Below, one piece after another: positions 9,683 through 59,657 of a stretch of DNA of 64,000 bases. Under the pieces are notes generated by a model that did no database searches, was not told the origin of the DNA, and saw only the letters and a list, made by a program, of their open reading frames with translations. The DNA is taken from NCBI GenBank assembly GCA_012932865.1, contig SAXG01000013.1:124001-188000 (forward strand), written 5' to 3'. The stretch is from Amylostereum areolatum. Taxonomy: Eukaryota > Basidiomycota > Agaricomycetes > Russulales > Stereaceae. Each line of letters starts with the position of its first letter. Within the stretch, counting starts at the first letter, position 1. The translations under genes were made by a program, and so were the position numbers.

Positions 9683-9765
9683 GCCATTGCGAGCATGGCA
9701 GTACGGTTCCTCACATTTTAAGTTCTCAGGTCAAATGTTGTGCATTAAAGTTTTTTTTACAGAGA

Positions 9766-10245
9766 GTGTTCATCCTTTTTGTAGTCTCTGTTCATCTTTT
9801 TTGTAGTCAGGTTTCATCCTTTTTGTAGTCAGGTTTCATCCTTTTTGTAGTCCGTGTTCATCTTTTTTGAACCCGAGTGTTCATCTTTTTTGTAGTCAGG
9901 TTTCATCCTTTTTGTGGTCAGTGTTCATCTTTTTTGAACCCGGGTGTTCATCCTTTTTGTAGTCAGGTTTTATCCTTTTTGTAGTCAGTGTTCACCTTTT
10001 TTGAACCCGGGTGTTCATCCTTTTTGTAGGCAGTGTTCATCATTTTTTGCAGGCATAGTTAAAAATTTTGCAACCAGGGTGTTCACATTTTTTGTATGTA
10101 GGATTCAAATTTTCGAACTGTGGGGGCAAGGTATTTCAACCCAGGTGTTCAACTTTTTTGGAAGGAGCGTCCAGCTTTCGGCTAGGCGGGGGTACCCGTT
10201 TTATAGTCAGTGTTCATTCTTTTTGTAGGCAGGGTTTAGTCTTTT
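9766..10245 (+). repeat. 22-bp minisatellite array, first half
   Basis: About 20 degenerate tandem units of 21-23 bp follow the pattern GTGTTCATCCTTTTTGTAGTCA. Variants replace the second half with TTTTTTGAACCCGG. Units become more diverged after about 10040. No coding role is inferred. Confidence 0.85.
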
Positions 10246-11098: not shown

Positions 11099-12082
11099 TC
11101 AAAGGATCGTATAAATGAGAAGCACTGCCTTATAGCTCCTAATACGGTACACATCTTCGAGCTGTGTGAATTTGCCCTCTGCTCGACAATTGCCACCTGT
11201 CTTGATCCCATCATAGTACCAAGTCTCACCGGCACCTGTAAGTAATCTACATACAAAATGGTTTCCATCCCAATATACGATCCCCTTCAGTCTATAGGTA
11301 TGTTTCACATTGTCAACCTCTATCGTCATCTACTGCCTGATTTTCACCAGGGTAAATCCATCTTCTGAACTCGACACATCGAGCAGAGGAGGGGGATACT
11401 CTCCCAATATGGTCTTCTTGCTAAGATAATGACCACATACTCTACACTCCTGAGCAGTTCTGTTAACATCCACCTGCCGCATCAGATCTGCTGCCACAGT
11501 ATGTGGGCCATCATTTGAGAGAAACCAATGAGCAACATGCCTTTCGCGCACACTGTCTACAGTGTGACATGGCTTGCAATAATGTTCCTGCCTTAGTGGA
11601 TACCTCCTACTGGTGAACAGCTTTTGTGCCAAGCTTGGAAGGTTAGTACCTTGTCTCCCAGTGACTGGGAATACCTCCGGGCTTACCTCATTCATCATAG
11701 AGTGAATCCTGTCCTTTCCCTCATCAACATGTTTCCAGTCGCCATCTTGGTCTGTGAGAGTCCAATCTGCTGAGAGTGTGGCAAGGTAATTGTTCATCGG
11801 CTTTACATTAGTATGCCAAGCATCTTTCCTTTCACACCATAACTGATACAGAATAGTCAGGACACTATCAAATGCACAACTCCAGGTTTCAGCATTCCAA
11901 GAAATTCCACGAGGGCCTGATACCTGACTTCCTTGTACATGTCTTCTCTTTATCCTTCCTCCTTGTGTCTCGCTCACAGCATTCAGCTTCTGGCTTCCAG
12001 CTGCAGGGAGATAGACAATACCTTCATGTGCATCACATTTCCACTTTTGACCCTCAAGAGCCTTCGTACGTGCCTCAGTTAC
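11099..12082 (-). pseudogene. Helitron C-terminal cysteine-peptidase-like domain
   Basis: In the helicase frame, after removing the TRIM and one copy of its duplication, the protein continues into a 320-residue domain. It contains TWSCAFDSVLTIL (candidate catalytic Cys at 11876-11878), two CxxC pairs (zinc-binding-like, near 11570 and 11440), GNHFVCRLL (candidate His at 11258-11260) and WYYDG (candidate Asp at 11210-11212). A Cys...His...Asp order with these surroundings resembles papain-fold peptidases of the USP/OTU type. A TAG at 11330-11332 separates the Cys half from the His half. The fold is inferred from motif order only. Confidence 0.6.
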
Positions 12083-12128
12083 TGTTGAAAACACAGAGGG
12101 ACCTTCAGTCATAAAGTGAAACACAAAG

Positions 12129-12202
12129 TGGACTGGCCGGGGATTGAACCCAGGACCTCCCATATTCTAGAAGGGTGCTCTAACCAACTGAGCTACCTGT
12201 CC
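12129..12202 (-). tRNA. tRNA-like sequence in TRIM 1 LTR
   Basis: 74 nt fold as a class I cloverleaf: acceptor GGACAGG/CCAGTCC (one A-A mismatch), D stem GCTC/GAGC, anticodon stem CCCTT/ATGGG (one T-T mismatch), 5-nt variable loop, T stem CTGGG/CCCGG with loop TTCAATC, discriminator A. A-box and B-box matches (GGTTCAATCCC) suggest Pol III promoter potential. The literal anticodon would be AGA, but Ser tRNAs have a long variable arm, so the isotype is unassigned and a translational role is unlikely. Confidence 0.6.
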
Positions 12203-12422
12203 GATAGTGGGAACAGGTTGGTAGTTGATATAGAGAATATCACCGAGCTCTGATTGTGTGCAACAGGCCAGGGCTTAGCCTTATTTCAACACACCCCCGT
12301 AAGACCAGGCCTGATGTGATCTTAGGCACTCGCCACTTGTGCCCAACAGTAATCATGAAGGCGGGTGCTGCTACCATGTTGAAAACACAGAGGGACCTTC
12401 AGTCATAAAGTGAAACACAAAG

Positions 12423-12496
12423 TGGACTGGCCGGGGATTGAACCCAGGACCTCCCATATTCTAGAAGGGTGCTCTAACCAACTGAGCTACCTGTCC
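12423..12496 (-). tRNA. tRNA-like sequence in TRIM 1 second LTR
   Basis: Looks identical to the copy at 12129-12202, as expected for the paired LTR. Confidence 0.6.
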
Positions 12497-12698
12497 GATA
12501 GTGGGAACAGGTTGGTAGTTGATATAGAGAATATCACCGAGCTCTGATTGTGTGCAACAGGCCAGGGCTTAGCCTTATTTCAACAGTTACAAGTCTCCAG
12601 TCATCTTCCTCTATGTCAGGTATTTCCATCTCCCTGATATGAGTCCATTGCAGAGCATCAGGAACATTCTCAGGAACATGCAGTGCACCAAACTTTGT

Positions 12699-14507
12699 TT
12701 AGTACCTCTTGATCAAAGTGTATCGTGTCCCATCTGTAAGCAGCTTTGCTTTCTTATTGTGATAAAATCTGAGTCGGGTTATCTCATCCAGCAATTCGAG
12801 CTCTCTAAACTCTTGACGTAGATATCCAGACAGCCCTCCCTGAATGAGCCTTGGCTTACAAGATCGGATTACAATTGTACCTTCTAGGCTAGAGCTTCTG
12901 GAAAGACATGTGTAGACAGATTGATGAGACCGACATTCAGCCAAGTCTACAACATTGAATGGACGTGTTCTGCCTTGTGACACATAATCTGTCATAGCAA
13001 AGTTGGGAATGACCGGCACCTGCTGTCTGGATATCCATAACCCTTCATCGTTTGGAAGAACACATCTTACACGCTGAGACTGTTTTGCTATTGGGATCAC
13101 ATTAAGTGGTAGACCATCCAGCTGAATATCAGAAGGAGGTTTGACCAGCTCAACGAACAGGACATCAAGCAGGTGTTGATTATCTTCTGTGATACATTCC
13201 TGCCACCCGCTAACAACACCTTCTGCCCCATTTATTACGTTCAGTTCAGTGGCCTCATTCTTCTTGATTAGAACCGGCATTCCTTTACATAGAGATAGTG
13301 TTTCAGGTATGTGCCCAGTCACACCTGGTCTGAGTTGTCTCAGTCTATCCTGTAGGGCAGGTGTAAGCCTATCGTCTGACCTCAAAGAATCCACCTCAGT
13401 TTTTCCTTTTCCTTTTTTTGACTTGGCCTCTGTTGATTGAAATCTATCCACAGACACAAAGTTGGACAACCTTTGATTTGTATCCTGTGCAAAGCGGGTG
13501 CAGCCCATCTGATTGATTTTGTCTCTATGAGAGTTGATTCCTGTAATAATCGAAACATTTCTAAAGTCAGGCTTGGTCAAGTCAACATCAGGATTGTTAG
13601 ATCCTGGAATCCGAGACTCAAGTAGCCGTATATCATCAGCTGTACAGCTATAGTAACGCAGATTCTCAAGCACGGTGCGGAACTTTGCATCACCCTCACT
13701 TTGTGTTTTTTGGCGCATATTTTGTCGGAGAATTACAACAACGGTGAACTGGTGCCATATTGCTTTACCAATACTCCTCTTTTGCTCTCGCACAGCATTG
13801 GTAGTACTCTTTAAAGTGGATACAGTATGACTATAAAGTGCCGGGCCCTTTGCACTTACAGGTGGGAGCTGAGCAAAATCTCCGGCCATGATCAAGTTCA
13901 ATCCGCCAAAGGCAAGGTCTTCATTTTGTAGTGCTTTACTCATTTGTGAGCTAATGAGATAGAGGTCTCCACAGTCGATCATGGATATTTCATGTATAAA
14001 CACATACTTCACACCTCGCAGTCGATCTCTAACGTTGTTCAACACCTTTGGTGTGTCATTCACACCGGATGAACCATTTCCATCTGCACTTTCTCGTCTA
14101 AAGCCTAATACTGAGTGATACGTTGATCCAGAGACCAGTGCAGCAGCCGACCCTGTTGGAGCCAATATCATAAAACAATGTGGATGTCCCTGCTGCTCAA
14201 AGAAGTACTTTAAGGCCTTGATGACTTGGGACTTTCCTGTACCTGCCATTCCACCTAGATGCATCTTCAGCTGATCTGGACATGGGTGTACAGAGTGATT
14301 CACAATGATCCTAAATGTCCTGCATTGCTCCTCATTCAAGGTGAACTTAGCAATCACATTTTCCATCATTTTGAGATCTTTGGGCTTACCCGCCTTGAAA
14401 TTCTCTGTCAGATACTCCAAATTCACCGTTTTGACTTCATTGACCTTGTAAGTTGGATAATTGCCGTTCTGGTTTGGCCCTTTATTCTTATTGTTTGATT
14501 CCTCCAT
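12699..14507 (-). pseudogene. Helitron PIF1-type helicase region
   Basis: A superfamily 1B helicase of about 600 codons. Walker A is GMAGTGKS (about 14235-14258). Motif II reads FIHEISMI where the family has D-E, so the Mg-coordinating Asp appears replaced by His. GDFAQLPP, LRQNMRQ and the C-terminal VSQGRT and YTCLSRSSSLEG blocks are all visible. The frame ends at TAA 12699-12701 but continues in phase for 37 codons to the TRIM insertion and then into the peptidase-like domain. The stop could derive from CAA by one C-to-T change. With the Asp-to-His change this copy is unlikely to unwind DNA even if expressed. Confidence 0.85.
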
Positions 14508-14519
14508 CAGAGCATTCTG

Positions 14520-17348
14520 TCAAGCTGTTATCTTTGCCTCCTTCGCTGCAGCAAGAACATTTTTCCAACCATTTCCTGATTGTCCATCTCTATATACAAA
14601 CTCTTTCTCTACTCGCGCTGTGGGGTGTTCAGGATCATTCATCCATCCACTCCTCTCAATTACATTCTCTATCTGCTGCATTTGAACCTCCTTATTCAAA
14701 GTACCTTGTCCCATGTCCTCCCACAATAACTCTACCTGTTCCATAAACTGCTCTGCCTCTAGACTCCCTGTCACTTGGTATTCAGTATGGTTCGCATCAA
14801 GATGGTCTGCATGCCGGCCCATTACAGGGTGGTCTAAGTCAGCCCTTTGTGAGTGACGCTGCGCAGCAAAGTCATCACGAGCATCATTACACTCATAACG
14901 GATTTGCATAAATTTCATGATGTCTTTCTGTCGAGAGGAGAATGTGTGCATCTGGAATGCCTGTTCCCAATTCTGCTCCATCTCTTTCAGGTCGCCCCCT
15001 TCTCTCCATGGTTTAAACAAAGTCAACATAGTCAAACAGTAGTCCTCATAGTTGCCTTGGTCTGCTCGTGGAAGAATACCTCCTACAAATGTTGGTACCT
15101 TAGCATTTGCTTCAGAACTTAGTTTCACGGTATGAGTCGTCCTCTGAGGATGATTTTGTAGGAAGCTGGGACACTTCTTTCCTTTCTTTTGTGTCACTCC
15201 TTTCTGATCTTCATCCTCTGAATCACAATCCTCATCACTCTCATTGTCAGTAGGGGCATATTCTTCATCATTCTCATCTACTGCTGTGGAGCCACTACTC
15301 CATTTGGTGTCAGAGTCACCATATCCACCCCCACTAATTTTATGGCTAGGTTCCATATCATCTATCATAGTCTCATCCGAGTCATATACTGGATCAATGT
15401 CCATCTGCATAGTCTTTTGTAAATATGTATCATTCATAACAGTGTCTTGAACACTATCAACTTCTACCTCCATACTATCATTGTTCTTCTTCTTCTGATT
15501 GAGAGACTTGATGGTCACTTTGGTAACAAGTCGGACCCAGTCATATAGACACATAGACCGAAACTCTGTGGGCCAATGCATGTAGTCTTGTACAGGTGAT
15601 ATGCTGACAACCTGCTCATTGACAATCTGAACAACAACTTTTTTGTGTGCAGTATCCTCTGCATTGAGAATATTCCAAGCCTTCTTTACTTCATTTACAT
15701 ATGACTTCCAAAAGAATGTCTTAAATTTGTGAGTTGTGTAGTGATCAGGATGGCCAAGAATATATGCCGATGTCATTGGTCCACCCATCTCCAGTTTCGC
15801 AGATAATGCATTCACAATGCGCACTATGAGTCGGCGGGCCTTCACTATGCGGTCTTCTATTCCATTGATCAGCTCTGACGATCGATTGAGAACACCCTTC
15901 ATTATCTCAAATATGACGTGCGTTCGTAGGGGAGTTTTTGTGATGTAATCTGTAATATACGCTATAATTGACTTGATAGCGGTTCCGGAGAGCAGGCTTG
16001 TAACATTGGTATTACATCTGGACACATAAGTTAACACAGGTGAGAATGTATTCAGCCATTTTTCGCCCTTTTTCAGGCGCAGACTTCCACTGTCAGGATC
16101 AACAAGAGTCTCCTCGTGCAATTCTCTGGGAAACCGAGATTTACAAGTTGGATATTTCACGCTTGTGCACCCCGCATGGCAGTTATGCTTGTTAGAGCGG
16201 TATAGAAGTTCATTTGTTGTGTCTCTAAACTGATTTCTCCAATCTCGCAATGCAGTACATTGCTCACAGTCGTCTTCTAGTTCCTCTTGGTGAGTAGTGC
16301 ATGCATCAGAAGGGGATACTGGAAGTGTACAAGTGGGATCAGACTCTTTGGGATTCTTATAACATTTCTCTTCTAACTTGCTTTGCATTCCAGCCATATC
16401 AGTCCCTATAAACTCACCACAGTGAACACCCTCCAGATATTCAACCATAGCCTTTTGAAAGTCTGACTTTTTATCCATAATCTTGTCCCGTATCTCCTGA
16501 GGTGTTAGAGCATTTGCTATCCAGATGAGCATATGTAGATGCAAAGTAAGATGTCCTTGTTCCTCAGCTGTGCCGTAGTATGCTGCCGTATTACCATAAA
16601 GTCCTTTGTGTTCAGACCCAACATCCAGCACATGCTTCAAAAACATCTCCACCATAAACTTAAAAAATCGAGCGCCTGCTACGGGATTGTTTGCAATTAG
16701 ACGGTATCCATCGCTATTAGTATATGACATTGGATACAATGTCTGATCTTGTTGGGCAAAATACAAAGCTATAGGGTGCTTAACATCAGCAGGTGCAAAT
16801 GTGATGAACCAAGACGGTGCGCCGAGGTAGGAGATTAATGCCCAGATTTCATTTCTCATATACTTACGACTTGTGCGTGACCCTTGAACATGATGTGCAA
16901 CTGAGTCTAGATCATTGATAACTTCATAGCACTCCTTTTCTGCTTGAGTAGCGGGTTTTACATGTTCATCTCTCTCTAGCCTAGCCACAAGGTCGGCAAG
17001 CACACCTACATCAAAATTCAGCAGTTTGTCCGCAATCTTTGGAAACTGACTTCTCTTTGCTGTCACAAATCCACCTGTAACACTACCTTTAACTTGTAAA
17101 TGATTCAATGCCACAAGAGGAAACATAGCCTCTCTCTGGAACCGCTTGTCGTAATATAGAAGTAGGGCCTTTTTACGTGCAGCATCCGACACCTTTGATT
17201 TTCCATTTCCATTCTCAATACCACCTAGACCATATGGAAACAACCAAGGAAATGCTTGTGGGTATAGTTGAGGATTCTGGTACAGGGACTCAGGAACAGC
17301 CTCATAGCCAATACCCAAGGCAGAATGGCCATCTGTGAGATGCTTCAC
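14520..17348 (-). pseudogene. Helitron Rep (HUH endonuclease) region
   Basis: This 942-codon frame holds the Helitron-like N-terminal domain. The HUH motif HLH lies at 16533-16541 in the context TLHLHMLIW. The two catalytic tyrosines, spaced Y-x3-Y, are at 15957-15959 and 15945-15947 followed by ITK. These residues nick and join single strands in rolling-circle transposition, and all are present. A long acidic linker follows (15500-15200). The frame opens with a GTG codon inside the original polyprotein, so its left boundary reflects a frameshift and not a real start. It ends at TGA 14520-14522; the helicase resumes in the same frame four codons later, consistent with a CGA-to-TGA change. Confidence 0.85.
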
Positions 17349-17453
17349 AGCGAGCGCCTTTAATTGCTTGGTAGTTTTATTGTGAGCCTGTTAATGTATG
17401 GACAACAAATGGACAGTCTCCATCATCTACTCCCTCCTCTTCTTCTGCTAGAT

Positions 17454-18521
17454 TTACTGGCTGATTCTCGGAGTCCTTATGTTTTGGCGGTAGGCGATAG
17501 TCGGTGTACACTTGTTGTCAATATCTGTAGGTTTACTTGGGCCAATGTAAATATATGCCAACACTTCATCCAGCTCCTCTGCTCTAGGTGGCAAGACATT
17601 GAAAACCTTGGGCATCGGAACTGAGAACATAATAGCATTAGCACACATTTTGTGCATCCCTGATTTCTCAACCTTGACAACACAGTAATTGTGACAGACC
17701 CTAGATATCATCATCTTCTCAGCATATCGTAGATCTTGCAGCTCTGGTGGGACCTCCCCAATCCAGTTACCATTCACTAGTGCCAGGGAGGGAATCTCCC
17801 CTTTGTCTAGCTTCTTTCCACATGGCTGACATACTTTTGAGCAACCTGATGCAAGGATAGGTCCTTCAATAGATTGCACAAGCTCCCGCTCAGAGTGTTG
17901 CTCCCGTCTTGTGACCAGATCGGTTGAGTGCTCAAGAATGTTTATGATGTCAGTGTACTCCTTCAAGGACTTCATATTCTTTGATAGAGTCAGACTGCCA
18001 CACACAGCACATCCTTCTTCAAGTACATTTTCTGGTAGGATGTTGTCACAGTACTTCCGAATGATGGTCTCCATTTCAGCATTAGATGGTGGCTCTGGTG
18101 GAAATTTTTTAGCATCTCGTGTAGGAGTTTGTTCTGAACTCCTGGTTTTAGGCTGCTTATTTTTCTCTAGGTCTCCGTCTATGCCATCTGATTTTTCTGG
18201 TGATGTCGACGTTCCATATTGACCATTGATTCCTGTGTGGGGTTTCTTTCCCGAAATACGAACATCTCCTACTTTGACAGCAGGAATGGCCTTTGCTCTC
18301 ATCTTACGCATACGCTCCGTTGAACCTCTGTGTTTTGGGATATATTTGAATACAGAAACACACTCTCGACAGACAGAGCACTGGGTTTTCCCATTTGTCG
18401 TATGCTCTAGTAGCAGTCGTCTGAGATTATCCACCGTCTTTTCTGCAGCCCCAATACGTATACTATGAATAGCGCAAACACTGAGCAATTGTGTTTTAGT
18501 TAGATATTTCAGAGCACTCAT
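17454..18521 (-). pseudogene. Helitron N-terminal zinc-finger/DUF6570-like region
   Basis: The likely ATG is at 18519-18521 (protein begins MSALKYLTKTQLL); the frame is open further upstream to about 18977 without an obvious start. Visible features are a CxxCxxC cluster (CSVCREC) near residue 50, a Lys/Ser/Asp-rich linker, CAVCG, CxxxCxxCG, and the block SRVCHNYCVVKV typical of the region preceding Rep in fungal Helitrons. The frame ends at 17454. Sequence continuing to the Rep start (an acidic segment, 17450-17350) lies in other frames, so at least two small indels disconnect this part from Rep. It probably binds DNA or the element's ends, by analogy only. Confidence 0.7.
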
Positions 18522-19002
18522 TGGGGCAGATGTGTACAGATCTCCTTTACGTGCATGGAAATCTGCCTGTGTCTTATTTATATAATGGCCTAAGAATATA
18601 AAAGCAGCATCGCCAGGGTATACAAGTCCAGAAGTGATTGAGTATTCTTCTAACTCATCATAATGCCAAACATGGAGCCCTCCTCCTATATGCTTTGGAC
18701 GCCACCAAAGTAGATGATAGATCACTCGTCGCTTGTATTCCAGAATGTGTAGAACAGCCACAAGTATTATGAACACACTTGTAGTTACAATGGGACCCAT
18801 ATGGGACATGGTTTGTTTAGGAGGCCCTATGGCCCACGGCCCTATAGCCGTTAGCCCTATGGCTAGATATAGTAGCAACCTGAGTATGGATATTGACAGA
18901 GTATAGCGAGATGAAGATACCAACGTGGTGTGACCAGTACAAGTAAAGAGTAAAGTAAGTGTCTGACAGCAGAGCACAATATGGCTTACTCAAGATGTTC
19001 AC

Positions 19003-19453: not shown

Positions 19454-19499
19454 TGTTGAAAACACAGAGGGACCTTCAGTCATAAAGTGAAACACAAAG

Positions 19500-19573
19500 T
19501 GGACTGGCCGGGGATTGAACCCAGGACCTCCCATATTCTAGAAGGGTGCTCTAACCAACTGAGCTACCTGTCC
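19500..19573 (-). tRNA. tRNA-like sequence in TRIM 2 LTR
   Basis: Same 74-nt cloverleaf as at 12129-12202; no difference seen. Confidence 0.6.
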
Positions 19574-19793
19574 GATAGTGGGAACAGGTTGGTAGTTGAT
19601 ATAGAGAATATCACCGAGCTCTGATTGTGTGCAACAGGCCAGGGCTTAGCCTTATTTCAACACACCCCCGTAAGACCAGGCCTGATGTGATCTTAGGCAC
19701 TCGCCACTTGTGCCCAACAGTAATCATGAAGGCGGGTGCTGCTACCATGTTGAAAACACAGAGGGACCTTCAGTCATAAAGTGAAACACAAAG

Positions 19794-19867
19794 TGGACTG
19801 GCCGGGGATTGAACCCAGGACCTCCCATATTCTAGAAGGGTGCTCTAACCAACTGAGCTACCTGTCC
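19794..19867 (-). tRNA. tRNA-like sequence in TRIM 2 second LTR
   Basis: Same 74-nt cloverleaf as at 12129-12202; no difference seen. Confidence 0.6.
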
Positions 19868-20150
19868 GATAGTGGGAACAGGTTGGTAGTTGATATAGAG
19901 AATATCACCGAGCTCTGATTGTGTGCAACAGGCCAGGGCTTAGCCTTATTTCAACAGGGGCGTTGCGTGCGCGCTTGATGTTGCGAAATGCGCGCCCTGG
20001 AGGATGGGGATGGCGTTGGGAGGCGACGGATGGGTCGTTCGACTTGAAACTCGAGGGCTGGGGCCTCTAGGGATGGTAGGAGAGGTGTGTAGAAGGACGA
20101 GGCGAGGGGGGTGCTGTGAGGCGAGATAAAAGCGATGGATGTTGGCTAGA

Positions 20151-20167
20151 GCGCAGGGCCCATAACC
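20151..20167 (-). other. copia primer-binding site (half initiator tRNA-Met)
   Basis: Directly abutting the inverted LTR, the plus strand reads GCGCAGGGCCCATAACC, which matches the anticodon-arm 5' half of eukaryotic initiator tRNA-Met. On the element's sense (minus) strand it is therefore complementary to a tRNA cut in its anticodon loop, the priming mode known for Drosophila copia and Ty5. This identifies the inverted LTR as the element's true 5' LTR. Confidence 0.8.
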
Positions 20168-20618
20168 TGTTGAAGTCGCAGTTGAAGGGGCTAGCCAACT
20201 AGCTAGGGACGCTCAGAACTGACACAAACAGTGGATTGCTGCAGCACAGAATGAGCGACTGAGAAACAAGACAGAAACGAGCAAAGGGCATACCTGCAGC
20301 ACAGAATGAGCGACTGAGGAGGAGCAGACGCGTGTGGCTGCAGGTAGAGGCCATGGAGCGTGGGAGGAAACTCGGAATAAGCCGAGAATCGACCTAAAGC
20401 GGTAACTAACTCGAAACTGAAGCTAGGGAAGCTAGCTCAGGCTGAACTACAGTAAGTACAGTACAATAGCGAACAGTGGGTGAAGTGGAGAGGGCATGTG
20501 AGGGTATAGACGCGGAATTAGATGATAATAGGGTGAATGGAGCGGAATAGACGCGAATAGAAGGGAGATAGAACAGAATAAAGGCGTAGAAATCAGACAT
20601 AAATGAATATCTTCAACA
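20168..20618 (-). repeat. copia 5' LTR, inverted
   Basis: 451 bp, reverse complement of 25450-25900 with one substitution seen (near 20605). Ends are TGTTGAAG...CTTCAACA. Any promoter in it now transcribes leftwards, away from gag-pol. Confidence 0.92.
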
Positions 20619-21119
20619 GCCCCTTCATCCGTTCGCCTCGCCCTTGCATATTCCGCATCTACTACTCCCTATCCAACTTCGTGCCAAGCCCCAAGGCCGT
20701 CGCTTTTGTCGCTGCGCGTCCACAGCCTGTGACGCTTCCTCCTCCTCCTCCCACAAACATCAAAGGCGCCCTCAGCGCCCCTTCAACCGTTTGCTACCTC
20801 GCTTCGCGTCAGCCCTCCCTACCACCCTACCTACCCCCTCGCCAAACGCGGTAGCCGTCGCTGAAGCCGTTCGCCCTCAGGAGCTCGTTGTTTGCAGGAG
20901 GCTGTTTCGAGAAATTTTCACCTTGGGATCGGACGAGTGTAGCTTCCCATCGCGTTGTGCTATCGGTACGCGCTCTTCAGGCCTCCATCTAGACCATCCA
21001 CCCTCCCCATCGCCGTCGTACCCGCCCCCATCGCCCTATCCCATCGCCCTCGGCGCCCCCTCGAACCTCTGCTCGTCCAAATCGTCGCTTTTTGCGTATA
21101 TCCTCTCCAATTCCTCATT
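20619..21119 (+). other. copia leader (remainder of 5' UTR)
   Basis: GC-rich leader between the inverted block and the gag start. It begins with GCCCC, the TRIM 2 target duplication. A 55-codon in-frame extension upstream of 21120 starts at an ATG at 20955 but is Pro-rich and lacks gag features, so it is treated as leader. Confidence 0.6.
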
Positions 21120-24100
21120 ATGTCCGACTCTATCCCCAAAATCGACGCTCTCACCGGCCAAAACTACAAGGACTGGTCGAACGAGGTTCTGGCCTGGCTC
21201 CAGACCAAGGGCTGGGACGCTGTAGTGCTGGGGGAGACGTCCAAGCCGGCGGATACTGCTGCTGCCGCCCTCAAGGAGTACACCTCGATCTGCTCCAAGG
21301 CTGGGGGTGCCATCTACCTCCTCATCTCCAAGGACCAGCGAGGTCCTGTGGACGACCTTAGGCGCGACGCCCCTGCTATGTGGACGAAGCTCGAGGCGCT
21401 GCACGTCAAGAAGGCGCCTGGCGCGCGCTTCAACGCGTATGACGACCTCTTCAATGTCCGCAAGAAGGAGGACGAGTCCCTGCTCGCTATGGCGACGCGA
21501 GTCGACGATGCTATGCGTCGCATTCGTTCCCTTCGCCCTGCGTCTCTCACCCTCGAGGAGCTCGACAAGGAGCTCACCACCATGGCGTACATCCGCGCCC
21601 TCCCCTCGGAGTACTCCTCCTTCGTCTCGTCCCTCCTCCTGCTCGAGAAGCTCGACCCCGACAGCGTCAAGGACGCGTTTGTGCGCGAGGAGACCAACAG
21701 GGAGCGCAACCCCGAGTTCTTCAAGCCGGACGCTTCGTCTGCGCTCAGTGCGTCGTCGTCTGGCGCATCTGGCAAGGCCAAGGGGCAGTCCTCGCGTCCA
21801 CGTCTCACTTGCGCGTTCTGCAAGAAGAGCGGGCACGAGGAGAAGACCTGCTATCAGAAGCAGATCAAGGACCTGCGTTCTCGCCTTGGGGACAAGGCCA
21901 ACGCCGCTTCGTCGTCGTCTGACGGCTTCAATCCTGCTGGCGAACACGCTGGCAGCGCTGCATCCGCAAGTGTCGCTCCTTCCGACCCCCTCTCGCCGCT
22001 GCAGCTCGATGCTGACGTCGATTGGAATGCAGACACCGGCGCCACGTCTCATATGACCCCGCATCGCCACTTCTTCGCCTCCTACCGTCCCCTTCGCACG
22101 CCCATTCGCCTCGCAGACGGAAAGACGGTGTACAGTGCAGGAGTCGGTTCAGTGGTGTTCAATCCGGTTGTAGCAGGAAAGGCGCAGGGTGCCGTCGAGT
22201 TTACTAGAGTCCTCCATGTTCCCCATCTTCGCAATAATCTCCTCTCTGTCCTCTACCTTGCGAAGCATAAGGCGTTCGTCGTCACCATCAAGGGGAGCCG
22301 CGTCTCCTTCGCTAAGGACGGCGCTGTGTGGTTCACTGCAACGATCAACGATGCGAACACCGCCTATCTCGATGGTTCCACCTCTACAGCGTCGCACTAC
22401 GCCCTATCCGCCGCGCTCGCCGCCTCTACGCCGCTCGACGCGTCCCTATGGCACCGCCGCCTGGCTCACTTCAACCACGCTGGTCTCCAGCGCATAGTGC
22501 GCGAGAATCTCGTCACCGGTCTCGTCTTCAACTCGTTAGAGAAGCCCGACCCTATCTGCGAGCCCTGCCTCGCTGGCAAGATGCATGCCGACCCGTTCCC
22601 CTCCTCTACCACCGTCTACACAAAGCGCCTCGCCCTCGTCCACTCTGACCTGCACGGTCCGCTTCCAGTCCGCACCGCCTCTGGCTATCGCTACTGGGTC
22701 CTCTACATCGACGCCGCCTCGCGTTTCTACGCCGTCTACCTGCTTCGCAAGAAGTCGGACCAGTACGAGGCGTTCAAGGACTTCAAAGCGTGGGCCGAGA
22801 AGCAGACAGGCGAGAAGCTGCTCGCGCTGCAGGACGACAAGGGGGGCGAGTACATGGGGCGCAACATGGACGAGTTCTGTTCGCTGCACGGGATCGAGCG
22901 CCGTCATACGACGCGCAATCGCCCTCAGCAGAACGGCGTGGCGGAGCGTGCAAATCGCACCATTGAGGAGGGTGTCACCGCGATGCTTGCGGAGTCCGGC
23001 CTGCCTGCGTCTTTCTGGGGAGAAGCGCTCAGTGCCTACATCCACGTCCGCAACCGCCTGCCCACCGCCGCCATCAAGGCGCACACCACGCCCTTCGAGC
23101 TCTGGCACGGGTCCAAGCCGGATGTGAGTCGTCTGCGCGTGTGGGGATGCACCGCATACGTCCATATCCAGCGCGACAAGCGCAAGGGCCTGCAGCCGCA
23201 CATGGTGAAGGCCGCCTTCATCGGGTATCCGGAGGGGTACAAAGGCTGGAAGTTCTGGGACCCTATAGCGAAGAAGGTCATCATTTGCGAGCGCGCCGAC
23301 TTTGATGAGCGCGATTTCCCTCGCTCCAGGCTCAACAAGCCGCTCCTGCCCTCGCCTTCCGCTCCCCTCTTCCCTCCTCCGCCTCCATCGGAGCCTGCTC
23401 CCTCTCAGCCGGTGCTGGATGCCGGGGGAGACGACGACTCGTCCTCTGCTGAGCAAGACGAGCCTGATCTGCCTCCAGCTCCGCCTGCTGATGAGCATGA
23501 TCAGGATGCGGCCGATCCCGCTCCTGCGCCGCCTGCAGCCGATCCTGCACCTCCCTCTCCACATGCGGGTCCTTCGCGGCCTGCTCCTCGAGGGAGGAAG
23601 CGCGCCGCCTCGCCCACCGGTCCTCTGCGCCGTAGCACGCGCGACGCCGTGGTCAAGGCGCGATCGAACAGCTGGCAGCCTCAACCAGTGCCCTCCAAGG
23701 CGAAAGTGCGCGAGCCGCTTCCTGCAGTCGAATCCGACGAGGAGGACGATGCTCACAGCGACTCTCCTGAGCCGTGGGCGAATGACGACGTCTACTCTGC
23801 GCAGGAGACGCCTGAGGCCGCCTTTGCCATCCACACCGCGTTGGAGACTGCCCTTCTATCCGCAGACGGCGAGCCGCTCTCCTACAGGCAGGCTATGCAG
23901 CGTCCAGACGCGGAGATGTGGCTTGCAGCGTGCAGAGAGGAGCTCGACGCGCATGCAGCCAATGGCACCTGGTCTATCGCTTCCCTTCCCCCTGGCGCGC
24001 ACGCCGTCGCATCGCGCTGGGTCTTCAAGGTCAAGCGCAAGGAGGACGGCTCCATCGAGCGCTACAAGGCGCGCGTCGTCGCGAAGGGCTTTGCCCAGCG

Positions 24101-25430
24101 TCCTGGCTTCGACTACTTCGAGACCTTCGCTCCCACTGCCAAGTTCCAGGCCATCCGCACTGTCCTCGCCCTCGCCGCCGTCGAGGATCTCCACCTGCGC
24201 TCCATCGACATCTCCCATGCCTTCATCAATGGCGACCTCGATGCGGAGGTCTACATGAAGCAGCCTGAAGGCTTCGAGGAGGGTCCTCCTGGCGCGGTCT
24301 GCAAGCTGCAGAAGTCGATCTACGGCCTCAAGCAGGCCGCTCGCCTGTGGAAGATCAAGCTGATGGAGGTCCTGTGCGACAAGATGGGATTCCGCTGCAT
24401 CTACAGCGACGCGTCAATCTACGTGCTCCAGCGCGACGCTGTGCGCGTTCTCCTCCCTGTCTTCGTCGACGACGGCACCCTGGCGTCGAATTCGGAGCCT
24501 GTTCTCGACGAGATCATCGCCACTCTTCGCACGCACTTCAAGCTGCGAGACCTCGGCCCCACCTCCTTCCTCCTTGGCATCCACATCACTCGAGACCGCT
24601 CCCTTCGCACCCTCTTCCTCTCCCAGCGCCAGTACATCATCGACACGCTTGCGCGCTACAATCACGCCGACTGCCACCCTGTCACCACGCCTATGCTTCC
24701 TGGCTCGCGTCTGACGAAGGCCATGTCGCCCCAGAACGCTTCTGAGCGCGAATTCATGCAAAAGGTGCCCTATGGCAGCGCCGTCGGCTCCCTGCTCTAC
24801 ATCGCGACTGCGACCCGTCCAGACATCGCCTACACTGTCTCCAATCTCTGCCGCTTCATTTCGGACCCAGGTCCTCAGCATTGGCGCGCCGTCCAGCATC
24901 TGTTCAAGTACCTCCAGGGCACGAAGGACTTGAAGCTCGTGTACAGGCCGACCGACGACTCCGAGCTGTTCACCACCTTCACAGACTCGGACCACGGCGG
25001 AAACGTCGACAATGGCCGCTCCACAGGCGGGTATCTCGTCCGCATTGGTTCTGGCGCTGTCAGCTGGAGCTCTCGCCTCCAATCGCTCGTCGCACAGTCG
25101 ACGACCGAGGCGGAGTACATTGCTGCCGTCGAGGCTGGCAAGGAGATCGTCTGGATGCGCAACCTGCTCTCTGAGTTTGGCTACACAGTCGAGGGCGCTT
25201 CGCTCCTGTACTCGGACAATCAGTCGTCTATCAACGTCTCAAAGAATCCCGAGCATCATGGACGCATGAAGCACCTCGACCTGCGCTTCTACTGGCTGCG
25301 AGACGAAGTGGAGGCCGGCCGGATTGTTCTCAAGTTTGTGGGGACAAACGAGATGCCGGCCGACATCCTGACGAAGGCGCTGCCTCGTGAGCGCGTTGTG
25401 CGCTGCAGGGAGATGATGGGACTCGAGTAG
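21120..25430 (+). CDS. gag-pol: copia Gag-Pol polyprotein (intact)
   Basis: A single uninterrupted frame of 1,436 codons; the ATG at 21120 (MSDSIPKIDALTGQNY) was chosen because copia Gag typically opens near the LTGxNYxxW block. In order: Gag with a CCHC knuckle CAFCKKSGHEEKTC (residue about 231); protease DTGATSHM (about 305); integrase zinc finger around HRRLAHFNHAGL (about 445) and catalytic core with HSDLHG, DDKGGEYMG and QNGVAERANRTIEE; reverse transcriptase with FAPTAKFQAIR, YGLKQAARLW and FVDD (about 1115); RNase H with TDSDHGG (about 1289), AQSTTEAEY and DNQSS. PR-IN-RT-RH order is diagnostic of copia. All catalytic residues I checked are present, so the protein is probably competent, but the displaced LTR deprives it of its own promoter. 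Confidence 0.95.
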   Translation: MSDSIPKIDALTGQNYKDWSNEVLAWLQTKGWDAVVLGETSKPADTAAAALKEYTSICSKAGGAIYLLISKDQRGPVDDLRRDAPAMWTKLEALHVKKAPGARFNAYDDLFNVRKKEDESLLAMATRVDDAMRRIRSLRPASLTLEELDKELTTMAYIRALPSEYSSFVSSLLLLEKLDPDSVKDAFVREETNRERNPEFFKPDASSALSASSSGASGKAKGQSSRPRLTCAFCKKSGHEEKTCYQKQIKDLRSRLGDKANAASSSSDGFNPAGEHAGSAASASVAPSDPLSPLQLDADVDWNADTGATSHMTPHRHFFASYRPLRTPIRLADGKTVYSAGVGSVVFNPVVAGKAQGAVEFTRVLHVPHLRNNLLSVLYLAKHKAFVVTIKGSRVSFAKDGAVWFTATINDANTAYLDGSTSTASHYALSAALAASTPLDASLWHRRLAHFNHAGLQRIVRENLVTGLVFNSLEKPDPICEPCLAGKMHADPFPSSTTVYTKRLALVHSDLHGPLPVRTASGYRYWVLYIDAASRFYAVYLLRKKSDQYEAFKDFKAWAEKQTGEKLLALQDDKGGEYMGRNMDEFCSLHGIERRHTTRNRPQQNGVAERANRTIEEGVTAMLAESGLPASFWGEALSAYIHVRNRLPTAAIKAHTTPFELWHGSKPDVSRLRVWGCTAYVHIQRDKRKGLQPHMVKAAFIGYPEGYKGWKFWDPIAKKVIICERADFDERDFPRSRLNKPLLPSPSAPLFPPPPPSEPAPSQPVLDAGGDDDSSSAEQDEPDLPPAPPADEHDQDAADPAPAPPAADPAPPSPHAGPSRPAPRGRKRAASPTGPLRRSTRDAVVKARSNSWQPQPVPSKAKVREPLPAVESDEEDDAHSDSPEPWANDDVYSAQETPEAAFAIHTALETALLSADGEPLSYRQAMQRPDAEMWLAACREELDAHAANGTWSIASLPPGAHAVASRWVFKVKRKEDGSIERYKARVVAKGFAQRPGFDYFETFAPTAKFQAIRTVLALAAVEDLHLRSIDISHAFINGDLDAEVYMKQPEGFEEGPPGAVCKLQKSIYGLKQAARLWKIKLMEVLCDKMGFRCIYSDASIYVLQRDAVRVLLPVFVDDGTLASNSEPVLDEIIATLRTHFKLRDLGPTSFLLGIHITRDRSLRTLFLSQRQYIIDTLARYNHADCHPVTTPMLPGSRLTKAMSPQNASEREFMQKVPYGSAVGSLLYIATATRPDIAYTVSNLCRFISDPGPQHWRAVQHLFKYLQGTKDLKLVYRPTDDSELFTTFTDSDHGGNVDNGRSTGGYLVRIGSGAVSWSSRLQSLVAQSTTEAEYIAAVEAGKEIVWMRNLLSEFGYTVEGASLLYSDNQSSINVSKNPEHHGRMKHLDLRFYWLRDEVEAGRIVLKFVGTNEMPADILTKALPRERVVRCREMMGLE

Positions 25431-25449: not shown

Positions 25450-25900
25450 TGTTGAAGATATTCGTTTATGTCTGATTTCTACGCCTTTATTCTGTTCTAT
25501 CTCCCTTCTATTCGCGTCTATTCCGCTCCATTCACCCTATTATCATCTAATTCCGCGTCTATACCCTCACATGCCCTCTCCACTTCACCCACTGTTCGCT
25601 ATTGTACTGTACTTACTGTAGTTCAGCCTGAGCTAGCTTCCCTAGCTTCAGTTTCGAGTTAGTTACCGCTTTAGGTCGATTCTCGGCTTATTCCGAGTTT
25701 CCTCCCACGCTCCATGGCCTCTACCTGCAGCCACACGCGTCTGCTCCTCCTCAGTCGCTCATTCTGTGCTGCAGGTATGCCCTTTGCTCGTTTCTGTCTT
25801 GTTTCTCAGTCGCTCATTCTGTGCTGCAGCAATCCACTGTTTGTGTCAGTTCTGAGCGTCCCTAGCTAGTTGGCTAGCCCCTTCAACTGCGACTTCAACA
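25450..25900 (+). repeat. copia 3' LTR
   Basis: 451 bp, TGTTGAAG...CTTCAACA, in normal orientation relative to gag-pol and followed directly by the AATAT target duplication. Confidence 0.92.
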
Positions 25901-26630: not shown

Positions 26631-29600
26631 CTAAACACCGACCGGAGAAGCAATTATAACAGCACCCGACAAGTTTAGGCTTACCATCTCAGAGGATCCC
26701 TTACCATCCTTATCCTTTGTGGTGTACAGAGACGCGGTATACAGACACATGATAAGAGCATGCGGTGGCAAGTTGCCCATCCAGAGTGTTGAAAACACAG
26801 AGGGACCTTCAGTCATAAAGTGAAACACAAAGTGGACTGGCCGGGGATTGAACCCAGGACCTCCCATATTCTAGAAGGGTGCTCTAACCAACTGAGCTAC
26901 CTGTCCGATAGTGGGAACAGGTTGGTAGTTGATATAGAGAATATCACCGAGCTCTGATTGTGTGCAACAGGCCAGGGCTTAGCCTTATTTCAACACACCC
27001 CCGTAAGACCAGGCCTGATGTGATCTTAGGCACTCGCCACTTGTGCCCAACAGTAATCATGAAGGCGGGTGCTGCTACCATGTTGAAAACACAGAGGGAC
27101 CTTCAGTCATAAAGTGAAACACAAAGTGGACTGGCCGGGGATTGAACCCAGGACCTCCCATATTCTAGAAGGGTGCTCTAACCAACTGAGCTACCTGTCC
27201 GATAGTGGGAACAGGTTGGTAGTTGATATAGAGAATATCACCGAGCTCTGATTGTGTGCAACAGGCCAGGGCTTAGCCTTATTTCAACACAGAGGGGTAA
27301 CTTGGCTTTGCCCTTAGCAGTAAGCATGTCGCTAAGCTTGGGGAACTTTCCAGTGTAGCCCTTCTTGTAGAGTTTGCGAGCATCCCAAACCGGAACTGAA
27401 GTATGCTCAAGTCAGCGGAGTCAGGTAGCAAGTTTAGTGCTGCACACTATTTACCTATCTCCTCCGCACTCAAAGCACGCCGTTGAAGCAGATTGGAAAG
27501 CCCAGGAGCTAGCTTAGACCGTCCACCCTGTTTGGCAATAGCCTTGCTGAAAAGGTTAGACTGGCCTATGGTAGGCTCATCCTCAACTTCTGTCAACAGT
27601 ATGATATCAATTCAATGGAAAGAACACATAAGATGTCGATTACATACCGGCTTCCTGAATCCTAGATATCTCGGCCCACTTGGTTGAAAATGAGACAAAT
27701 CCCTCCAGGTTGGTGTAGTAGCCCAGGTTGCGCTTCTTGAACGAAGTGGCAAGGAAGGCCTTCCGACGTTCAGAGTGCTGATATGCAGCAGCACCATAGA
27801 TCACCTTGAATCCTCGCAGCTTGTCCGAGGTGAGCTGCAAAGAGTCTACCTCTAGGTTGCTCTGGATGACCCACATGGGCTCAAAGAGGAGCGCAGGAGT
27901 ACCCTTGGTACACAGGATTAAACTGCCTGCACGACCTCCTAGCTTCTGCAGGCTGCACTCCCTGGGATCACCAAATGCAGGGCTGACTAGCTTTTCTTCC
28001 TCACTGCCGCGATAGCACACAGTATCCATGATTTGACTTAAACTTTGTTAGAACGATACAAACATATATTAAGACAGTCACTCACTCAATGTCATACTCA
28101 TTCCACATGTCCCACTCCAAGTTTTCGAACCCGTAAGCCGTCTCCTGGAAGGTACCCGTACAATTGACAGCCCTAACACATATAAGCCTTTAGGCACACA
28201 GGGCAAAAAATGTGGTAAACTCACGTGGTATAGCTGAAAACATTGTTCCAACGACCTTTTTCGAGATGACTCTGCATATCCTTGCTAGTATAGTAGCATC
28301 TGAATGTACGTGAGTACACGCTCATAGAGTAACAATATGAAACATACTGGGGCTGCTCTTCCTCGTTGTGATCCTCGCTCACTGAATCCTGGTCTGGCTT
28401 CTTGACGCTCTCTTCCTCATCACTCTCCGTTGCAACAGCCATGCCCTTGGTAGCCGCCATCTTGTTTTGTTGGACCAAACGCTTCATACCAAGGACCGCA
28501 TTGCCATCCACCCGGCCCTTGCCTTTGTTGGCCTTAGCCTCCTTAGCTGCACGTACCGCACTGGTAGGAAATATGTAAGTAGAAAATATAGCCAGAAAGT
28601 TGATTCCAACTCACAGCTTCTCATCACGTTCATCATCAGCAGCCGTTTTCTTGCGCAACTTCTTCGGCGGTACAGTCCTACACGCTATTCCGATCAGTTA
28701 TAATGCAATCCACAATAGAAGGAGTATGCACTCCAACTCGTCCTCAGAGACGATGAAGCTCTTTAGGTTGCCGTCAGAGTCAGCATCCGAATCAACATCC
28801 ATGGGCTCGTCCATTGACTCTTCGGCTTCATCGTCAACCAGATATTTAACACCTTTGGCCTTGATCTCTTTTACGTCCATATCCATATTGTCGTCTTCAG
28901 AGGCATCACCATCCTTGTCGGAGTCGGGCTGGACAGGGTGGGGAGTATCCTCCCGGCTAATAGCACATATATTCTGTCAGTCAAACCCTCATAAGATATA
29001 TATTAAGTGAGACGTACACTTGCTTACGCCTCTCAATAACAACCTCGGCTCTATTATGGATGATGCGTTTGATACCACGAGTGCTGAACTTTGAGTTAGC
29101 ATAAGTAGAAGCAGACAGGAGAAGAACAGACTTTATCTTTGCCTTCGCGTCTTTCTCGACCTTGACCTCCTCTTCTTCATCTGAAGAATCGATACTGATT
29201 ACATGGACCTTGGAGGGTTTGTTCTCCTCATCACTATCCCTAGAACAAGTTAGAATCTGTTGCTCACTCTACGAAGTGAAGAGCTCCTACCGAGTTTTCC
29301 GCTTTGAAGCACCTGTAGCCTTATCCTTTGCCGAGGACTGACTAGCCTTCTTGACTCCCTTTTGGGGCCCAGCACGAACTCTGATGTGTTATTTTAGACA
29401 AGAACAGGTATGGTGATGTAGATTAAGTACTCACCTCTTGCCACCTTTCTTTTGCACAGGCTGAGCCTTGCTATTAGATGGACCAGCCTGGGGGGAGTCA
29501 TGATCTGATGGAGTGTACGAAGGCACAAACCACCTAGCAGCACCGTAATCAACTTAAGCAATATGATGTCGCAAGAAGAACTCACGCAGGCTCTGGAGTG

Positions 29601-45414: not shown

Positions 45415-46440
45415 GTACAAAGTATTCAAAGGAAAATGCAAAAGAGTTCAACAGGTTTGTACCAAAATTTCTGTACAAAAATGTTTATGTGTTTTAGAAA
45501 GTGTTTACATGTGGGTACAAAGTGTTCAACTGGTTTGTACTAGGTGTTCCAACGTTCTGTACAAAAGTGTTCAAACTTTTTGTACGAGATGTTCAAAATG
45601 TTTGTACAAAGTGTTCAAAACCTTTGTAAAGACATGTTCAAAACCTTTGTACAAAGTGTTCAAAAATGTTGTACGCAGTGTTCAAAAATGTTGTATGGAG
45701 CCTTCAAAAATGTTGTATGCAAGTGTTCAAAAACTTTGTACAGTCTTCAAAAATGTGGTATGAAAGTGTTCAAAAACTCTGTACAAAGTCTTCGAGAACT
45801 TAAATTTGTGTACAACAGTCTTCAACGGGTTTGTGGTAGGTGCTCCAACATTTTGTACAAAAGTGTTCAAAATGTTTGTACGCAGTGTTAAAAAATGTTG
45901 TACGAAAGTGTTCAAAGACTTTGTACGAAGTGTTCAAACTTTTTGGACAAGGATGTTCAAAATTTCTGTACAATGTCTTCAAAAACTTTGTATAGAGTCT
46001 TCAAAACCTTTATATGGACGTGTTCAAAACCTTTGTACGAAGTGTTCAAAAATGTTGTACGAAGTCTTCAAAATGTTTGTAAGAAGTGTTCAAAACGTTT
46101 TGGCAAAGTGTTCAAAATGTTTGTACAAAGTCTTCAAAAATGTTGTATGAAAGTGTTCAAAAATGTTGTACAAAGTCTTCACGAACTTTGTACAAGGTCT
46201 TCCAAACTTTTGTACGGAGGTGTTCAAACTTGTTGTACGAAGGTGTTCAAAAATGTTGTACAAAGGTTTGCAAGTTGGATCACAAAAGGGTTCAAAACCT
46301 TTGTACAAAGGTGTTCAGAAGCTTGTACAGAAGGGTTCAAAAAGCTTGTAGAAGGGTGTTGCAAAGGCTGCCCAAAAAGGTTTAAAACATTTGGATGGAA
46401 GTCTTCAACCTGTAGTATTTGGCAGAAGGGGTTGTAGCGG
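45415..46440 (+). repeat. 22-bp minisatellite array, second locus
   Basis: About 45 tandem degenerate units with the pattern TGTTCAAAACCTTTGTACAAAG, 20-24 bp each, all in one orientation. The GTTCA...TTTGTA skeleton and the 22-bp period are shared with 9766-10680. Because 22 is not a multiple of 3, all frames stay open and give 22-residue-periodic Cys-rich translations, which are not taken as protein. Confidence 0.88.
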
Positions 46441-46740: not shown

Positions 46741-47163
46741 TGTCAGAAACGCAGTTTATGAGACCGATGGAACTGCCTAAGTCGCGACGACGGGAGGAGC
46801 AAGAGAGAACAGATGGATTCGAGAGTGTCAGGCCTAGGGTAGTGCAACATGCGCTACAGTACCGTATGACGAGATGGACAGTCTAGGGAAGAGGGAAGAG
46901 AAACACTGTCCTTATATACAAGTGGGTACGATGGTGCGATGTGATGCGATAGTGGTGCGAGCAGGGGGAACAATAAGAAAGGAGTCATGGGGCGGAGGAC
47001 GAAGGTCCGGAGCAATGATGTCATAGATAAGGATGCGGAACCCCGCTCAGAAGTCCGGGCAATGATGTCGTTGAAGCAAGTGATGCAAGGGAAAGTCATG
47101 TGCCATGACACGTCGCGTGTACGAGGTCTGCAAACGAAGAGAGAAATGGAGCGATCTGTGACA
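46741..47163 (-). repeat. E0 3' LTR
   Basis: 423 bp, TGTCA...TGACA ends, aligned with the LTRs at 48835 and 62727. A pyrimidine run at 47166-47175 (CCCCCCCTTT on the plus strand) is the polypurine tract of the element. Confidence 0.9.
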
Positions 47164-49257: not shown

Positions 49258-49259
49258 CC

Positions 49260-49270
49260 TGGACAGTCTA
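49260..49270 (+). other. E1 primer-binding site, self-complementary type
   Basis: TGGACAGTCTA lies two bases after the LTR and is the exact complement of 49113-49123 in the LTR, close to the expected transcript start. This is the Tf1/sushi self-priming arrangement. The same pair is kept in E3 (1225-1235 with 1373-1383). Confidence 0.75.
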
Positions 49271-59655: not shown

Positions 59656-59657
59656 TA

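What the first reader, a model, noticed from the sequence alone, without database searches (positions are those of the whole stretch)
12083..12585. TRIM retrotransposon carrying a complete tRNA-like sequence in each LTR
Seen: 503-bp LTR-core-LTR units at 12083, 19454 and 26787 with 209-bp LTRs, 5-bp target duplications, primer site and purine tract. A 74-nt cloverleaf with A- and B-box matches sits in sense inside every LTR. Known: plant Cassandra TRIMs carry 5S rRNA promoters in their LTRs. Inference: this is a tRNA counterpart, giving the element a Pol III promoter or an RNase P/Z-processed end. A tandem-tRNA SINE model fails because the paired LTRs, PBS, PPT and 5-bp duplications are those of an LTR element.
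Basis: partly seen in the sequence, partly recalled or inferred. Interest (0 to 1): 0.88.

Follow-up and report, generated by a model that had tools for sequence, protein, structure and literature searches.

The report
Miniature LTR retrotransposon with tRNA-like promoter
This is a 503-base mobile element, present in dozens of nearly identical copies in what is probably a fungal genome, that carries a tRNA-like sequence in each of its two end repeats; it belongs to a kind already described in 2024 (Helenus), the tRNA-like part is likely its promoter, and a Copia retrotransposon that sits among its copies likely supplies the enzymes that move it.

Summary
Three identical 503-bp LTR(209)-core(85)-LTR(209) units lie at 12083, 19454 and 26787 on the minus strand, each LTR holding a tRNA-like sequence in sense (Rfam tRNA, 56.1 bits). 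One detail is wrong: copy 2 has no target duplication, explained by nesting in a Copia leader followed by an inversion. The assembly holds 55 matches of the LTR end plus primer site; 41 of 45 full-ended units have exact 5-bp duplications and 43 of 45 have identical LTR pairs. The interpretation (tRNA counterpart of Cassandra) is right in kind but already published as Helenus (Kojima 2024). It is not a normal tRNA-Ser: it lacks the long variable arm of the three host tRNA-Ser(AGA) genes examined, and its best fold lacks a normal anticodon arm. New here: a likely autonomous partner, Copia-B (same 7-bp LTR ends, purine tract differing at one base, 5-bp duplications, the same primer tRNA at a different site, 45 of 55 copies within 25 kb of a Copia-B against 1.3 expected), and a predicted U3-R-U5 layout in which the only T4 run lies 5 nt from the LTR end. 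Pol III transcription and mobilisation by Copia-B are untested. Verdict: new member of a known kind.

The parts
12083..12585 (-). Helenus copy 1, complete (LTR-core-LTR); 5' LTR 12377-12585, core 12292-12376, 3' LTR 12083-12291
   Evidence: identical LTRs
12078..12082 (.). 5-bp target duplication GTTAC (other copy at 12586-12590)
12423..12496 (-). tRNA-like sequence in the 5' LTR of copy 1 (LTR positions 90-163), A and B boxes
12129..12202 (-). tRNA-like sequence in the 3' LTR of copy 1
12364..12376 (-). primer-binding site, 13-nt match to the 3' end (with CCA) of host initiator tRNA-Met
12292..12300 (-). purine tract ACGGGGGTG next to the 3' LTR
   Evidence: compare Copia-B ACGGGGGAG
12382..12385 (-). 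TTTT at LTR positions 201-204 of the 5' LTR, predicted weak Pol III terminator (the same run is at 12088-12091 in the 3' LTR); the only T4 runs of the sense strand
   Evidence: number not unusual against shuffles
12522..12526 (-). TATAT 26-30 nt upstream of the tRNA-like start, predicted TATA-like element (role untested)
19454..19956 (-). Helenus copy 2, complete but without a flanking target duplication of its own (AATAT/GGGGC)
26787..27289 (-). Helenus copy 3, complete, duplications CAGAG
19454..20618 (.). inverted block: Helenus copy 2, 211 nt of Copia-B leader with its primer site, and the Copia-B 5' LTR (20168-20618, minus); outer ends TGTTGAA...TTCAACA, bounded by AATAT on the left and GCCCC on the right
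20151..20167 (-). Copia-B primer site, 17-nt complement of the anticodon arm of host initiator tRNA-Met
20955..25430 (+). Copia-B polyprotein frame, 1491 aa (Retrotran_gag_2, gag_pre-integrs, rve, SH3_retrovirus, RVT_2)
25450..25900 (+). Copia-B 3' LTR (451 bp, TGTTGAAG...CTTCAACA), preceded by CACGGGGGAG and followed by AATAT

Best explanation
The 503-bp unit is a Helenus-type TRIM, a non-coding LTR retrotransposon with a tRNA-like sequence in each LTR, which is likely transcribed from that sequence by RNA polymerase III and likely mobilised by the enzymes of a Copia family (Copia-B) of the same genome. Shown: LTR-core-LTR anatomy, 5-bp duplications, a primer site for the 3' end of initiator tRNA-Met, a G-rich tract next to the 3' LTR, no stop-free stretch over 59 codons, 55 matches of LTR end plus primer site, LTR pairs identical in 43 of 45 full-ended units, and solo LTRs. 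Inferred: Pol III would start near LTR position 80-90, read through the single T4 run at positions 201-204 of the 5' LTR, and stop at the same run in the 3' LTR; the RNA would then carry about 115-120 nt of terminal redundancy (R), a U3 of about 80-90 nt and a U5 of only 5 nt, enough for strand transfer to rebuild the whole LTR. Inferred: Copia-B particles take up initiator tRNA-Met; Copia-B primes from its anticodon arm, Helenus from its 3' end; the Copia-B integrase recognises the shared TGTTGAA...TTCAACA ends and directs both elements to the same regions. The tRNA-like sequence would act as promoter, not as a tRNA.
For: Anatomy and copies. Promoter boxes and tRNA score. Not a normal tRNA-Ser: called Ser(AGA), but 74-75 nt without the long variable arm of the three host tRNA-Ser(AGA) genes examined (82-83 nt); best fold lacks a normal anticodon arm. 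Partner: Copia-B and Helenus share 7-bp termini TGTTGAA/TTCAACA and ACGGGGGNG next to the 3' LTR; solo Copia-B LTRs show 5-bp duplications in L002 (AAAAT) and L052 (GCGCA). Copia family A has the same ends but a different tract, GTGGGAG; the one copy examined of family C ends TGTCGA/TCGACA, and a Gypsy in the window begins TGTCA. 45 of 55 Helenus lie within 25 kb of one of 45 Copia-B RT matches (1.29 expected), 0 of 55 within 25 kb of families A (19 matches, 0.89 expected) or C and others (7 matches, 0.34). Copia-B looks young too: 20 of its 45 matches lie in a stop-free frame of 1494 aa or more (my count). Both families have primer sites for initiator tRNA-Met.
Against: No transcript data. 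The Helenus core is not significantly similar to the Copia-B leader or tail (leader P about 0.05 on a 12-nt stretch, tail 0.88). Primer sites differ: 3' end against anticodon arm. No other element with the Helenus primer site was found (55 matches of one pattern; a looser one adds 5, fewer than the 14 of its reversed control), so an autonomous element with the same site may be absent or missed. The 7-bp ends are shared with family A, and at 50 kb 3 of 55 Helenus lie near family A against 1.71 expected. Shared location may reflect common accumulation rather than a shared integrase. T4 would also stop Pol III early in the 5' LTR, and one T4 in LTR+core is what shuffles give (mean 1.2). Changes among LTRs fall inside the tRNA-like part as often as its length predicts (15 of 42 distinct changes, 36%, against 35%), so no selection on it is visible within the family.
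Confidence: 0.58

Rival explanations
1. A Helenus-type TRIM that is transcribed by RNA polymerase II from the U3 part (TATAT at LTR 60-64), with the tRNA-like sequence a passenger.
For: A TATA-like sequence lies 26-30 nt upstream of the tRNA-like start. Among LTRs that differ from the window's, 15 of 42 distinct changes lie inside the tRNA-like part, just its share of the length, and several inside it recur in two or more LTRs (137-139 deletion, 144, 150, 153, 158).
Against: A and B boxes are exact in the window copies; 25 of 27 distinct LTRs are still called as tRNA, with an ascertainment bias; the four commonest changes (LTR 48, 56, 70, 89; seen in 8-20 LTRs) lie outside positions 90-163; box conservation across Helenus families is reported by Kojima 2024.
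Confidence: 0.22
2. A SINE or a tandem pair of tRNA genes rather than an LTR element.
For: Pol III boxes and small size.
Against: Paired identical 209-bp LTRs with TG...CA ends, 13-nt primer site, 41 of 45 full-ended units with 5-bp duplications, 14 of 22 solo LTRs with 5-bp duplications, and no tRNA-Ser variable arm.
Confidence: 0.01
3. The element is mobilised by another LTR family of the genome (Copia family A or C, a Gypsy, or one missing from the assembly), and its location with Copia-B reflects shared accumulation in repeat-rich regions.
For: Copia family A has the same 7-bp LTR ends; no other element with the Helenus primer site was found.
Against: 0 of 55 Helenus within 25 kb of families A or C; purine tract closest to Copia-B; the Gypsy in the window begins TGTCA. 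Other Gypsy families of the genome were not surveyed.
Confidence: 0.28
4. The tRNA-like sequence is cut by RNase P and RNase Z and makes the RNA ends, or yields a usable tRNA.
For: 19 of 21 cloverleaf pairs are standard.
Against: Best fold lacks a normal anticodon arm; isotype mismatch; RNase Z cleavage in the 5' LTR would separate R from the primer site (inference).
Confidence: 0.05

Closest known systems
Helenus (Kojima 2024, PMC10886601; parts 1-4 of 6 of the text and the figure and table section read, no supplement)
   Same: TRIM with a tRNA-like sequence in each LTR, primer site, purine tract, 5-bp duplications in fungi, anticodon and body type at odds in many families, initiator tRNA-Met as a primer, Copia proposed as helper; [quoted passage not shown]
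   Different: This family could not be compared by sequence with the published ones. Added here: a candidate Copia partner within the same genome, shared location, shared LTR ends and purine tract, use of the 3' end of the tRNA while the candidate partner uses its anticodon arm, and a U3-R-U5 reading of the T4 run.
Cassandra (plant TRIM with 5S rRNA in its LTRs; facts as given by Kojima 2024)
   Same: Small-RNA gene with internal Pol III promoter in both LTRs.
   Different: 5S rRNA instead of tRNA; transcription start and stop known; R of 18 bp, against about 115-120 nt predicted here.
Copia families of fungi primed by the initiator tRNA anticodon arm (Kojima 2024)
   Same: Copia-B in the window has a primer site for this arm.
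   Different: Helenus here has a primer site for the other end of the same tRNA.

Membership tests
Helenus | TRIM: two LTRs, no coding capacity, short (published range 311-1263 bp) | tested here: met
   503 bp, identical 209-bp LTRs, longest stop-free stretch 59 codons
Helenus | tRNA-derived sequence within each LTR, boxes A and B kept | tested here: met
Helenus | primer site and purine tract at the ends of the core | tested here: met
   13-nt match to host initiator tRNA-Met 3' end; ACGGGGGTG, short and impure
Helenus | 5-bp target duplications (fungal Helenus) | tested here: met
   41 of 45 full-ended units
Helenus | sequence relationship to a published Helenus family | not testable with these tools
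   published sequences are in Repbase and a supplement, not available here
TRIMp3 (TRIM with a working Pol III promoter) | transcription by RNA polymerase III | not testable with these tools
   boxes only; no RNA data
functional tRNA-Ser gene | long variable arm as in host tRNA-Ser(AGA) | tested here: not met
   74-75 nt against 82-83 nt in the three host genes examined
tRNA-derived SINE | no LTRs, insertion by target-primed reverse transcription | tested here: not met
   LTR pairs, solo LTRs, fixed 5-bp duplications

The most novel reading that the evidence does not exclude
Helenus and Copia-B form a parasite-helper pair that shares one primer tRNA at two different sites: Copia-B particles take up initiator tRNA-Met for anticodon-arm priming, and Helenus, made by Pol III with a T4-defined R region that leaves a 5-nt U5, uses the free 3' end of the same tRNA and the same integrase and target regions.
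Probability: 0.3. Interest if true: 0.6.

Novelty: new member of a known kind. Interest (0 to 1): 0.36.

Why it matters
The element kind is known, but Pol III transcription of Helenus is described as unproven in the paper that named it, and its helper is there inferred from primer sites and one sequence match. This genome holds a very young family next to young, apparently intact Copia copies, so both points become directly testable. It also warns annotators: the assembly has 162 sites of the element's A-box pattern, none followed by C, G or T, that is, all consistent with this element, and ARAGORN of 27 distinct LTRs as tRNA-Ser(AGA) genes.

Tried and rejected
Autonomous element with the same primer site: pattern CATGGTAGCAGCNNC gave 55 matches, all with the same ACC extension, a number equal to the Helenus cores that I fetched (54 units plus one extra core in L028); TGGTAGCAGCAC gave 60, the 5 extra fewer than its reversed control of 14. 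Core similarity to Copia-B: none convincing. Other Helenus families by paired tRNA matches about 226 nt apart on C80, C77 and C178: these proved to be clusters of different tRNAs, probably mitochondrial. Donor tRNA: the A-box pattern followed by any base but A gave 0 matches; the closest of the host tRNAs sampled is tRNA-Ile(AAT), 54-56 identities. Initiator tRNA: one pattern gave a single match not called as tRNA, a second gave none, a third found six genes. Host species: a 573-aa window frame gave no homologue; among the 120 of 1239 Copia-B protein relatives listed, the named fungal ones, Taiwanofungus and Sparassis, are at 48% identity, others being unnamed or of Lolium, so the host is probably a basidiomycete but unnamed. 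Selection on the tRNA-like part within the family: not visible. T4 scarcity: not significant. RVT_2 rows: 130; 45 taken as Copia-B by score and full profile span (11 of these, L093-L103, checked by LTR), 19 as A, 7 as C or other; 59 partial rows were dropped.

Full report
What is there. The three units at 12083-12585, 19454-19956 and 26787-27289 are exact copies of one another: LTR of 209 bp, core of 85 bp, LTR of 209 bp. The element reads on the minus strand of the window: its primer site, TGGTAGCAGCACC, follows the LTR at 12377-12585, and its G-rich tract, ACGGGGGTG, precedes the LTR at 12083-12291. The tRNA-like sequence occupies LTR positions 90-163 in the same sense. It scores 56.1 bits against Rfam tRNA, within the range of the other tRNA matches of the genome (34.8-67 bits), and has exact A and B boxes. 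No stop-free stretch exceeds 59 codons.

Copies. The assembly (57.1 Mb, 182 contigs) has 55 matches of the LTR end plus primer site. In the stretches fetched I found 54 LTR-core-LTR arrangements; 45 have both LTRs with full ends; 41 of these 45 have exact 5-bp duplications; 47 of the 54 have distinct 40-nt upstream flanks, the others sharing theirs in groups of two or three, as larger duplications would. In 43 of the 45 the two LTRs of the unit are identical, so the family moved recently (inference). Of 22 distinct full-length solo LTRs fetched, 14 have 5-bp duplications, as expected of LTR-LTR recombination. Of 27 distinct LTR sequences covering the tRNA-like part, 25 are called as tRNA-Ser(AGA) by ARAGORN; the two that are not share a 3-nt deletion. 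L047-L049 and L065 came in through their tRNA match and L104-L113 through an exact A-box match, so LTRs with destroyed boxes would have been missed. Of 42 distinct changes among the LTRs, 15 lie inside the tRNA-like part, which is what its length predicts: no selection on it is visible within this family.

Copy 2. It lacks a duplication: AATAT on the left, GGGGC on the right. The explanation lies to its right. A Copia element (Copia-B) has its 3' LTR at 25450-25900, followed by AATAT, and its 5' LTR at 20168-20618 in inverted orientation, followed by GCCCC. Reading leftward from the inverted 5' LTR come the Copia-B primer site, 211 nt of leader, and then Helenus. Four other Copia-B copies have this leader uninterrupted at that point, with a single GCCCC (L006, L032, L050, L051). 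So Helenus entered the leader with a GCCCC duplication, and the block from the start of the Copia-B 5' LTR to the end of Helenus was inverted; its two outer ends are the 7-bp inverted repeat TGTTGAA/TTCAACA that both elements share. The order of these steps is inferred; both duplications, AATAT for Copia-B and GCCCC for Helenus, are accounted for.

Not a normal tRNA. ARAGORN names it tRNA-Ser(AGA), but the three host tRNA-Ser(AGA) genes examined have 82-83 nt with a long variable arm, and this one has 74-75 nt without it. Its closest relative among the host tRNAs sampled is tRNA-Ile(AAT). Two of 21 pairs are non-standard and the best single-strand fold replaces the normal anticodon arm by a longer hairpin; the fold is not clearly more stable than shuffles (z -1.25). 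This agrees with the isotype disagreement that Kojima reports for many Helenus families.

Primer and partner. A pattern search found six initiator tRNA-Met genes; the four examined end in TGCTGCTA. With CCA added, the Helenus primer site matches 13 nt in three of them and 12 in the fourth; the Copia-B primer site matches 17 nt of the anticodon arm in the same three and 12 in the fourth. Anticodon-arm priming is what Kojima describes for fungal Copia and most fungal Helenus; a few fungal Helenus use the 3' end of a tRNA, initiator tRNA-Met among them. No other element with the Helenus primer site was found. Copia-B nevertheless is the best candidate helper. Its LTR ends (TGTTGAA...TTCAACA) equal those of Helenus, its tract ACGGGGGAG differs from ACGGGGGTG at one base, and solo Copia-B LTRs in L002 and L052 have 5-bp duplications. 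Family A shares the ends but has GTGGGAG; the one copy of family C examined has TGTCGA...TCGACA and GAGGGAGGG; the Gypsy in the window begins TGTCA. Of 55 Helenus positions, 45 lie within 25 kb of one of 45 Copia-B RT matches, against 1.29 expected from the coverage of such zones; 0 lie within 25 kb of family A (0.89 expected) or C (0.34 expected); at 50 kb the figures are 45 (2.26), 3 (1.71) and 0 (0.64). Of the ten exceptions, five have a Copia-B LTR in the stretch fetched (L002, L022, L036, L037, L052). The two families also insert into each other. Of 19 contigs with two or more positions of either, 17 have them all within 100 kb, which would fit centromeres; this was not tested. Shared accumulation without a shared integrase remains possible.

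How it would work. The sense strand has TTTT only at LTR positions 201-204, in both LTRs. One T4 in LTR plus core is not unusual against shuffles, so its place is suggestive only. If Pol III starts near LTR 80-90, reads through the first T4 some of the time and stops at the second, the RNA has R of about 115-120 nt, U3 of about 80-90 nt and U5 of 5 nt, and reverse transcription would rebuild the LTR. The first T run of four or more after 17 sampled host tRNA genes is 4 to 8 long, 4 in seven of them (probable mitochondrial tRNAs on L042, L043, L056 and L059 left out), so T4 may be a weak but real stop. A TATAT lies 26-30 nt upstream of the tRNA-like start and could serve either polymerase. All of this paragraph beyond the positions and counts is inference.

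Known or new. Helenus was described by Kojima in 2024 (PMC10886601; I read parts 1-4 of 6 of the text and the figure and table section, and searched the text for terms; no supplement). A 2026 meeting report mentions it in one sentence (PMC12859917, passages only). Among the titles listed by my searches (25 of 297; 4 of 4; 15 of 474; 11 of 15; 3 of 3) I saw no other paper on tRNA-bearing TRIMs in fungi; the library holds only open-licence papers. In Kojima's text 'terminator' occurs once, for Cassandra, and centromeres are not mentioned. The finding is thus a new member of a known kind, with a candidate partner and a testable transcription layout added.

Noticed in passing
window 45497-46350 and 9747-10047: Arrays of diverged 22-23 nt units (in the first, units like AAAGTGTTCAAAANNTTTGTA), unexplained.
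   Followed up: no
window 12699-18977: Minus-strand frames with PIF1-like helicase, Helitron_like_N and DUF6570 matches, probably one Helitron, between Helenus copies 1 and 2.
   Followed up: partly
window 46831-64000: Gypsy elements with chromodomain integrases, partly in inverted copies; one LTR pair at about 52594-53058 and 59658-60122.
   Followed up: partly
genome contigs C148, C41, C85: Copia RT matches at regular spacing (about 4004, 3728 and 4278 bp), as in tandem arrays of Copia elements.
   Followed up: no
L042, L043, L044 (C80, C77, C178): The same cluster of tRNA-Ala, Phe, Thr, Gln, Lys, Tyr on three contigs, probably mitochondrial or nuclear copies of it.
   Followed up: no
L013 1227-2227: A Helenus copy inserted into the end of another Helenus LTR, with duplication GTTTT at its T4 run.
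   Followed up: yes
C56:217300-218500 and 222200-223800 (L114, L115): A second Copia family (C) with LTR TGTCGACA...GTTCGACA, its two LTRs identical over 313 bp, whose primer site also begins with the initiator tRNA anticodon complement.
   Followed up: partly
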